This document shows, one piece after another, positions 57,978 to 60,128 of a stretch of DNA of 64,000 nucleotides. The stretch's first letter is position 1; each line of letters starts with the position of its first letter. The stretch covers positions 62,001-126,000 of the forward strand of contig NC_007426.1 of assembly GCF_000026045.1 (NCBI RefSeq). Direction: 5' to 3'. Below the pieces are notes generated by a model. The model saw only the letters and a list, made by a program, of their open reading frames with translations. It was not told where the DNA came from and did not search any database. The stretch is from Natronomonas pharaonis DSM 2160. GTDB taxonomy: Archaea > Halobacteriota > Halobacteria > Halobacteriales > Haloarculaceae. A program made the translations under genes and the position numbers.

Positions 57978-59303
57978 GTGACGACGCTGCTGGACGACCT
58001 CTCGGGCTACGAGTTCGAGGACGCCGTCGCCTCGCTGTTCCGGGCGCTTGATTACGAGGATGTCTCGGTCGCGACCCGGGTGGCAGACGAGGGCCGCGAC
58101 ATCACGATGTACGACGGTGAGACGGCCTACGTCGTCGAGTGCAAGCACACCGACACCGTCTCCCGGCCGGTCGTCCAGAAGCTTCACTCAGCGGTCGCGA
58201 CATACAGCCACGACGGCCCGAAACACGGGATGGTCGTCACCTCGGGTCGGTTCACCGGACCGGCCGAAAAATACGCCAAAGAGCTACGGGAGCGTGGCGA
58301 CCCGCACCCGATAGAGCTCCTCGATGGAACGGATATCCGCGAACTCGGCGAATCGGTCGGGATGGACCTCCGCAACGGCCGCATCGAGATTCTCTGCGAG
58401 GAAACGTTGCCGGTCGGCGACCCCGAGCACGTGCTCGCGGCTGTGTTCGAGGAAATCAAAAACGCCCCGCCGCGGACGAAACTCCCCGAACCGGCAGTCG
58501 AGGTGGGCTACAACCCCATCGTCGATATCGAGGCGGTCACCCGGTCGACCTTCGAGACGGGGGCCGGCGTCATCCACCGCATCAACCGCCGGGACCGCCT
58601 CATCGTCGAGGCCGACCCGGCCGGGCCGCGGCTCGCGCCGGGGGGCGTTTCCACCCTGACCGGCATCGAGTCGGTCGCCCTCAGTGACGAACAGAAGCGC
58701 CACGGCGGCGAGGCAGTCCGGTTCGGGCTGACGGAATCGGAGGCCAGAGACTGGACCAGAGAGCGTCTCTGTGACCGCCTTGAAACGACGGTGGCCTACA
58801 CCGGCGACAACAACGTCACCTACGAGCAAACCTGCCGGCCCTCGCCGGACGACGTTGCCCTCCAGCAGGTCGAGCCGTGTTATCTCCCGCGTGTCGACGC
58901 TGCCGTCGAACTCGGAGCCTACACCCACCGATACGAGTACGACGCCGCCGGTGAGCGGCACGTCCCTCGGACGGATGGCATCCGGCGCTGTGTTCACTGC
59001 GAGACGGCTGGGGCCGACGCGGCAACGTACACGTACTGTGAGAACTGCGGCAGCATCAGTTGCGGAACCCACACGAAGACCGAGCGGCTCGAATCGGAGC
59101 CGGTCTGTACCGGCTGTGCGGTCACCGGCGAGTTCTTTTATGCGACAAAGTACTTTTTCGACGAGGAAAACCGGGCGGCGTTCCGCGACGAGTACGAAGC
59201 AATGCCCATCCATCACAAAGCGATGGAAAACCCGTATTTGACGGCTGCTATCGTCGCTGCGGCACTGCTCGTCGTTGCGGCAGTGGCTGTCGCCGCCCTG
59301 TGA
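57978..59303 (+). CDS. Mrr-like restriction endonuclease with zinc ribbon and C-terminal membrane helix
   Basis: 441 residues with a GTG start. The N-terminal PD-(D/E)xK nuclease (~1-115) has GYEFEDAVASLFRALDYEDV, then DEGRDITM and VVECKHT, the D...ExK core, and KLHSAVATYSHDGPKHGMVVTSGRFT, as in Mrr enzymes. The middle ~200 residues are unassigned. A zinc-ribbon-like cluster (CVHCETAG...YCENCGSISC...PVCTGC, residues ~335-375) is followed by a single membrane helix (YLTAAIVAAALLVVAAVAVAAL) at the very C-terminus. Membrane anchoring is unusual for a nuclease. The stop lies inside the terminal sequence of the TnpB remnant. Confidence 0.87.
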   Translation: MTTLLDDLSGYEFEDAVASLFRALDYEDVSVATRVADEGRDITMYDGETAYVVECKHTDTVSRPVVQKLHSAVATYSHDGPKHGMVVTSGRFTGPAEKYAKELRERGDPHPIELLDGTDIRELGESVGMDLRNGRIEILCEETLPVGDPEHVLAAVFEEIKNAPPRTKLPEPAVEVGYNPIVDIEAVTRSTFETGAGVIHRINRRDRLIVEADPAGPRLAPGGVSTLTGIESVALSDEQKRHGGEAVRFGLTESEARDWTRERLCDRLETTVAYTGDNNVTYEQTCRPSPDDVALQQVEPCYLPRVDAAVELGAYTHRYEYDAAGERHVPRTDGIRRCVHCETAGADAATYTYCENCGSISCGTHTKTERLESEPVCTGCAVTGEFFYATKYFFDEENRAAFRDEYEAMPIHHKAMENPYLTAAIVAAALLVVAAVAVAAL

Positions 59304-59304
59304 A

Positions 59305-59387
59305 CTACCCCTGCCTACTCGCCTGCTTCGCAGGCTCCTTGAGGCAGGGGCTTCCTGATTCAACGACGCGACTTGCAGACACGGAAA
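59305..59387 (-). pseudogene. 3' remnant of an IS200/IS605-type tnpB, with terminal hairpin
   Basis: On the minus strand, 59364-59305 reads VESGSPCLKEPAKQASRQG and a TAG stop, the characteristic C-terminal end of haloarchaeal TnpB (IS1341-type) proteins as I recall it. The same frame continues upstream as VSVSASRV to 59387, where the nucS stop begins, so only ~27 codons survive. The DNA is a nested hairpin: CCCCTGCCT (59308-59316) pairs with AGGCAGGGG (59342-59350), and inside it GCCTGC pairs with GCAGGC around TTC. In active elements this right-end hairpin is part of the guide-RNA (omega RNA) scaffold. No transposase body, left end or tnpA is near. Confidence 0.8.
59308..59350. terminator. 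Nested hairpin between convergent genes
   Basis: Two stacked stems (9 and 6 base pairs) between the stop codons of the Mrr-like gene and nucS. It derives from the TnpB remnant. Whether it now ends transcription of either gene is inferred from position alone; there is no T-run next to it. Confidence 0.4.
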
Positions 59388-60128
59388 CTAATCGCGTGGC
59401 GTCAGCGAAACGAACTCCAGGCCCTGCTCGGCGAGCAGCGACCGCGCCCGCTCGGTGACCGAGGGCGCAACGAGAATGCCGCGAACCTCGGCGTCGGCGT
59501 GGAGGTCACGCTCCAGCGCCGCAACGTAGCGGTCAAGCTGGCCGACGGCGTCTGGACCGACACGCCGCCGTTTCAGTTCGAGAACGGTTGTTCGTCCCTC
59601 GCTGTCCTCGCCGTAGACATCGACGGCTCCGGCGGGCGTCTCGCGTTCGGTCGCCAGCGGTCGAAACCCCGACTCGACGAGCGACGGCTCCGAGAGGATG
59701 CGGTCTTTCAGGTCGGCTTCGGTTCCCTCCAGTTCGAGCGTCTCCTCGTCGGTCGGCCGAAAGACGGCAACGTGAGCAACATCGCTGAAGCGGATTTCGA
59801 GCCGCTCGTCGGGCGTCTCCCGCCGGCTCTCGATGACAAGTGCGCCGTCATCGACCCGGCACTCGTGGGTGCAGCCGGGGGGCTGCCAGTTGACCGGCTT
59901 TTGTCCCTCGTCGGTGTGGACGAGCGCCGCCCCGTCCGGTTTCAGCATCACGTGCCGGTCGCCGGGGCCGAGTTCGGACGCCGCCCGCCCCTCGTAGTCG
60001 ACGGTGCAGCGGCCAAAAAGCGTCACAAGCGCATCACTGGCGAGCCCGTCGGCGACGAGCGACGACGCCGGACCGACAGCCGGCTCGGCAAGCGTTCGTG
60101 TCGCGTCCTCGCTCGGGTCGTCTGTCAC
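59388..60128 (-). CDS. nucS: Mismatch-specific endonuclease NucS (EndoMS)
   Basis: 246 residues, standard for NucS. The N-terminal domain binds DNA (TLFGRCTVDYEGRAASELGPGDRHVMLKPDGAALVH, LVIESRRETPDERLEIRF). The C-terminal RecB-like nuclease has the catalytic Glu-Asp-Glu-Lys set: ILSEPSLVESGFRPLATERET, GAVDVYGEDSEG and TTVLELKRRRVG. It cuts both strands at G-T, G-G and T-T mismatches, a MutSL-independent repair route in many archaea, and may act with PCNA. A CTTAACCGC about 28 bases before the ATG may be the TATA box. Confidence 0.95.
   Translation of the reverse strand: MTDDPSEDATRTLAEPAVGPASSLVADGLASDALVTLFGRCTVDYEGRAASELGPGDRHVMLKPDGAALVHTDEGQKPVNWQPPGCTHECRVDDGALVIESRRETPDERLEIRFSDVAHVAVFRPTDEETLELEGTEADLKDRILSEPSLVESGFRPLATERETPAGAVDVYGEDSEGRTTVLELKRRRVGPDAVGQLDRYVAALERDLHADAEVRGILVAPSVTERARSLLAEQGLEFVSLTPRD

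What the first reader, a model, noticed from the sequence alone, without database searches (positions are those of the whole stretch)
59300..59390. TnpB 3' end and its hairpin preserved as a lone remnant between an Mrr-like nuclease and nucS
Seen directly: a minus-strand frame gives the 19-residue tail VESGSPCLKEPAKQASRQG plus stop, folding as a perfect nested hairpin, with no transposon body around it. Known: in IS200/IS605 elements the 3' part of tnpB and the right end encode the omega RNA scaffold that guides TnpB. Inference: the fragment is a decayed element, or a kept structured RNA or terminator. Both flanking coding regions end at its borders: the Mrr-like stop codon lies inside GTGAAC of the element end, and the nucS stop abuts the other side.
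Basis: partly seen in the sequence, partly recalled or inferred. Interest (0 to 1): 0.6.

Follow-up and report, generated by a model that had tools for sequence, protein, structure and literature searches.

The report
Target-precise stub of a TnpB transposon
An 88-letter tail of a jumping gene, identical to full copies in the same genome, sits exactly at that element's normal landing site between two genes without changing either protein, so it looks like a recent 5'-truncated insertion rather than a decayed relic or a native terminator.

Summary
Window 59300-59387 (minus strand, 88 bp) carries the last 20 codons of a tnpB and its right-end (RE) hairpin. It is 100% identical to two full 1433-bp IS1341/IS605 elements in the same genome, so it is not decayed. 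Relatives show the empty site: the convergent mrr and nucS stops overlap or nearly abut, with nothing between. The copy ends exactly at the RE terminus (TTCAC). On its other side it abuts TTAG, the target motif after which the full copies sit. Here TTAG is nucS's own stop. All left-end sequence is missing; the left break falls in the loop of a conserved omegaRNA hairpin. The stub therefore keeps the RE hairpin but loses the 5' strands of every other omegaRNA core helix (73.7 bits versus 131.6 for its parent). About ten similar TTAG-adjacent, 5'-truncated copies occur in other haloarchaea, one with a 99% identical resident parent. Best reading: a 5'-truncated insertion made by IS605 chemistry (target and RE processed correctly, left end lost), a relative of the known haloarchaeal PATEs. 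A native terminator is not supported. A working guide RNA is unlikely.

The parts
59300..59387 (-). 88-bp 5'-truncated IS1341/IS605-type insertion: tnpB 3' end plus right end (RE)
   Evidence: 100% identical to C2:50481-50570 and C1:2452121-2452209; absent from the orthologous junction of relatives
59305..59364 (-). last 19 codons and stop of tnpB (VESGSPCLKEPAKQASRQG*)
   Evidence: identical to the C-terminus of the 436-aa TnpB; that parent hits NCBIfam guided_TnpB NF040570 at 233 bits
59308..59350 (-). right-end hairpin (outer stem 59308-59316 / 59342-59350, inner stem 59321-59326 / 59330-59335)
   Evidence: this helix is conserved with compensatory changes in relatives' REs
59300..59305 (-). 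RE terminus GTTCAC; read on + it supplies the TGA stop of the mrr-like gene
   Evidence: identity to the two full copies ends exactly here
59388..59391 (-). target motif TTAG, which contains the nucS stop codon TAG
   Evidence: full copies L079, L080 and L081 also sit directly 3' of TTAG
59378..59387 (-). 5' end of the stub, TTTCCGTGTC: loop (TTT) and 3' arm of omegaRNA hairpin A, whose 5' arm is missing
   Evidence: folds of L002; covariance-model alignment
57978..59303 (+). Mrr-like restriction endonuclease (Mrr_cat PF04471), ends in the RE's TGA
   Evidence: Pfam E 3.5e-22
59388..60128 (-). nucS endonuclease, native C-terminus LTPRD
   Evidence: NCBIfam NF003270, 349 bits; relatives end LTP, LTPRGD or LTPQAD

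Best explanation
This is a recent, 5'-truncated insertion of a resident IS1341/IS605-type (tnpB-only) element. Shown here: full copies sit directly 3' of TTAG, their RE ends in TTCAC, and this copy sits directly 3' of TTAG with an exact TTCAC end and, judged against relatives, no loss or duplication of host bases. Inferred: a TnpA-type transposase supplied in trans cut the single-stranded target after TTAG and joined the RE 3' end to the right flank. The element strand was broken near the loop of the omegaRNA hairpin, and that internal 5' end, instead of the true left end, was sealed to TTAG. The result is a single-hairpin stub with no gene and half of the omegaRNA. It is probably neutral. TTAG holds a stop on each strand (TAG forward, TAA as CTAA in reverse) and the RE terminus restores a stop (TGA) in the same frame, so both flanking proteins keep their sequence.
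For: Identity to two resident full elements. Exact element ends from comparing two full copies in different contexts. TTAG at the left flank of three full copies. Junction without an insert in five relatives: two overlap their stops by 4 nt, two more have stops that overlap or nearly touch by inspection, one has a 28-nt gap. TTAG is rare here: 38 in 128,000 strand positions. Recurrence: TTAG-abutting truncated copies found without using TTAG in the search (L158, L147) and others found with it. In Halorientalis salina homology to a 99% identical resident parent starts exactly after TTAG. In 9 of 10 measured copies the break lies 3-14 nt upstream of the conserved TGCAA, in the 3' arm, loop or nearby of the omegaRNA hairpin.
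Against: The empty site comes from other species (66-71% protein identity for the mrr gene), not from another strain, so a longer-lived intermediate cannot be excluded. Most other examples were found with a TTAG pattern, so TTAG is circular for those. Only two cases have an identified near-identical parent. No TnpA was tested, and the break at the hairpin is a small-sample pattern. A search for an empty site in H. salina relatives found none.
Confidence: 0.68

Rival explanations
1. A full element inserted after TTAG and a later deletion removed everything from its first base to the hairpin loop.
For: Core deletions of haloarchaeal IS605 elements are documented (PMC3119063). Terminal-only forms occur in this genome and relatives (L005, L121, L122, L123). 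TnpA re-cutting at the left end could place the deletion edge at TTAG.
Against: The published core deletions join repeats of the two near-terminal palindromes. Here no left-end base remains and the junction shares only 1 bp with the parent. A random deletion would have to start at exactly the first element base, and similar TTAG junctions recur.
Confidence: 0.22
2. A retained, functional omegaRNA (or regulatory RNA) in the nucS 3' UTR that uses TnpB supplied in trans and would cut empty alleles (TTAG + AGGGCGGCGACAGCC).
For: Two intact TnpB copies with the same RE exist. The site still scores 73.7 bits with the omegaRNA model, and nucS sequence can refold into a partly similar shape.
Against: The 5' strands of all conserved core helices except the RE hairpin are lost; the parent scores 131.6 bits and the site has many broken pairs. 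No expression data. The insertion looks too recent for conservation to be judged.
Confidence: 0.07
3. A native terminator between the convergent genes mrr and nucS.
For: Strong hairpin at a convergent junction.
Against: Absent from the five relatives examined; identical to transposon ends elsewhere in the genome; no T-run, which archaeal termination is understood to need (own knowledge).
Confidence: 0.02

Closest known systems
IS1341-type (tnpB-only) IS200/IS605 elements of haloarchaea (ISNph series)
   Same: RE hairpin, TTCAC terminus, TTAG target, no target duplication; identical sequence
   Different: No left end, no complete tnpB, no complete omegaRNA
PATEs, including 52-bp terminal-only forms (Haloquadratum, PMC3119063)
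   Same: Gene-less IS605 derivative with a near-terminal palindrome and no target duplication; HqIRS71 in that paper also keeps part of the tnpB C-terminal region
   Different: PATEs keep a left end, or a left/right fusion at a repeat. Here the left end is wholly absent and tnpB sequence abuts the target
omegaRNA / reRNA / sotRNA (PMC8612924, PMC12558985)
   Same: Contains the RE hairpin and the 3' half of the conserved scaffold
   Different: 5' strands of the core helices are missing

Membership tests
IS200/IS605 (IS1341-type) element | exact RE hairpin and terminus | tested here: met
   identity ends at TTCAC as in full copies
IS200/IS605 (IS1341-type) element | insertion directly 3' of the target motif without target duplication | tested here: met
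   TTAG at the left junction; reconstructed empty site from relatives
IS200/IS605 (IS1341-type) element | left end with hairpin | tested here: not met
   homology starts inside tnpB; no left-end sequence at the junction
IS200/IS605 (IS1341-type) element | intact tnpB | tested here: not met
   only the last 19 codons and the stop are in the readable tail
PATE | too short to code, near-terminal palindrome, no target duplication | tested here: met
   88 bp with one palindrome
PATE | palindromes at both ends | tested here: not met
   only the RE palindrome is present
PATE | mobile, multi-copy | tested here: inconclusive
   single stub of this form found in this genome
TnpB omegaRNA | RE hairpin | tested here: met
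TnpB omegaRNA | core multi-helix scaffold 5' of the RE hairpin | tested here: not met
   5' strands lost; 73.7 vs 131.6 bits
TnpB omegaRNA | expressed and bound by TnpB | not testable with these tools
   no RNA data
native terminator | present at the orthologous junction of relatives | tested here: not met
   absent in five relatives

The most novel reading that the evidence does not exclude
IS605-type transposition in haloarchaea repeatedly yields 5'-truncated products. Target choice and RE joining are correct, but the left end is replaced by a break in the omegaRNA hairpin, giving minimal single-hairpin stubs. Because the TTAG target and the RE terminus both carry stops in the same frame, such insertions at overlapping convergent stops can be protein-neutral.
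Probability: 0.4. Interest if true: 0.6.

Novelty: new variant of a known kind. Interest (0 to 1): 0.42.

Why it matters
If the class is real, IS605 transposition has a failure mode comparable in outcome to 5'-truncated retroelements, and its break point could reveal how the single-stranded intermediate is processed in archaea. It also shows how these elements can enter gene-dense genomes without harming the genes on either side.

Tried and rejected
Rfam: no meaningful match. Terminator: rejected by the relatives' junctions. Decay: rejected by 100% identity. Terminal-only left/right fusion: true for L005, L121, L122 and L123, not for this site. A 1.6-kb mrr-nucS gap in one relative (G002) was checked for a full element; the mrr-side sequence showed no TnpB right end. 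A 200-bp BLAST survey over 293 genomes scored too few candidates per genome to list truncated copies. Empty site for the H. salina stub: flanks found separately, never joined; for the Saliphagus stub the tool could not be centred on that genome. The guide target TTAG+AGGGCGGCGACAGCC has no perfect match in the window. Copies where TTAG lies within or beside an intact tnpB region (L170, L172, L285) were discarded as chance.

Full report
Observation. The minus strand of 59305-59364 encodes VESGSPCLKEPAKQASRQG and a stop, and the stretch folds into the described nested hairpin. In the same genome (2,749,696 bp, three contigs; contig sizes fit Natronomonas pharaonis from my own knowledge) the stretch is 100% identical over about 89 bp to two full elements, at C2:50481-50570 and C1:2452121-2452209. 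Both encode a 436-aa TnpB without stops (NCBIfam guided_TnpB). The fragment is therefore recent, not decayed.

Element ends. The two full copies lie in different surroundings, so their comparison defines the element: about 1433 bp, right terminus ...GGGGTAGTTCAC, left start directly after TTAG. A third, 70% identical TnpB element also starts directly after TTAG. These are the features of IS200/IS605 insertion: 3' of a short target, no target duplication. For ISDra2 the TnpA target equals the TnpB TAM (PMC8612924); that this holds here is inference.

Empty site. Five relatives have the mrr-like gene and nucS convergent with no insert between them. In two the stops overlap by 4 nt, and in two more they overlap or nearly touch by inspection (the script misassigned the mrr frame there). 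The fifth has a 28-nt gap. The nearest reading for this genome is ...GCC GCC CT|C TAA TCG..., with nucS ending ...GAT TAG. The insert is thus 88 bp (59300-59387), directly after the TTAG of the nucS stop, with no host bases lost. Both proteins keep their ends: mrr CTC TAA becomes CTG TGA, and nucS is unchanged. The ancestral sequence is inferred from relatives, not seen in a strain.

Missing left end. Homology to the parent begins at TTTCCGTG inside tnpB, right after TTAG. In the parent this is the loop of hairpin A (GGACUCGG-UUU-CCGUGUC) in a multi-helix structure 5' of the RE hairpin. In 29 aligned sequences RNAalifold predicts this structure with 11 of 28 pairs showing changes on both sides, consistent with the omegaRNA described in Halobacterium (PMC12558985). 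The stub keeps only the 3' strands and the RE hairpin. A covariance model built without the parent scores the parent 131.6 bits and the window site 73.7, with broken pairs where nucS sequence replaces the lost 5' strands. A working guide RNA is unlikely but was not tested.

Recurrence. Among RE copies fetched by BLAST without regard to TTAG, two more lack tnpB and a left end and abut TTAG (L158, L147). Pattern searches gave further copies: Halorientalis salina, Saliphagus infecundisoli, Natronosalvus hydrolyticus, Haloquadratum J07HQW1, Halogranum rubrum and genomes G254, G212 and G189 (G189 diverged). In H. salina a 99% identical resident copy shows homology starting exactly after TTAG. TTAG occurs 38 times in 128,000 strand positions of the window. 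Distances from TTAG to the conserved TGCAA are 3, 4, 4, 5, 7, 7, 10, 13, 14 and 29 nt, read. No truncated copy was found nearer the RE in the 0-30 window, and no clear one in the 31-61 window. The sample is small and partly ascertained with TTAG.

Mechanism. Exact target and RE borders with a variable left border suggest that target cutting and RE joining proceeded normally while the left end was lost. Breaking of the single-stranded element near hairpin A and sealing to TTAG would explain this; every step after the border facts is inference. Insertion followed by a deletion starting at the first element base is the main rival. It differs from the published core deletions, which join repeats of the two palindromes (PMC3119063).

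Stop-for-stop. TTAG read on the other strand is CTAA, and the RE terminus read on the other strand is GTGAA, so TAA is replaced by TGA in the same frame. In this genome five of 14 RE-bearing copies end an open frame of 214-459 codons at exactly this TGA, and the Saliphagus copy has the same layout. This explains why both flanking genes end at the borders.

Classification. Not a complete IS605 element (left end and tnpB missing), not a canonical PATE (one palindrome only), not a complete omegaRNA, not a native terminator. It is a gene-less, 5'-truncated derivative of the IS605/PATE kind.

Noticed in passing
own genome L255, L256, L257, L258, L268 and L263, L264: Two families (5 and 2 copies, about 550 bp) without tnpB carry an omegaRNA-like core scoring 98-102 bits (L268 53 bits with an insert, L263/L264 77 bits); hairpin A differs between copies with pairing kept. 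They are better candidates than the window site for omegaRNAs served by TnpB in trans.
   Followed up: partly
L001, L007, L008, L011, L012 (own genome); L279 (Saliphagus): Host frames of 214-459 codons end exactly in the RE's in-frame TGA: the TTAG target and the RE terminus both supply stops, so insertion at convergent stops can be protein-neutral.
   Followed up: partly
L005, L121, L122, L123, L125, L126: Terminal-only forms fusing left and right ends of the same element kind, as described for Haloquadratum PATEs.
   Followed up: no
window 59299-59440, minus strand: nucS 3' sequence can pair with the stub to give a shape partly resembling the lost omegaRNA stems; probably coincidence.
   Followed up: no
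G000:C2:18131-19492: A second Mrr-like paralogue (42% identity) lies on the 131-kb replicon.
   Followed up: no
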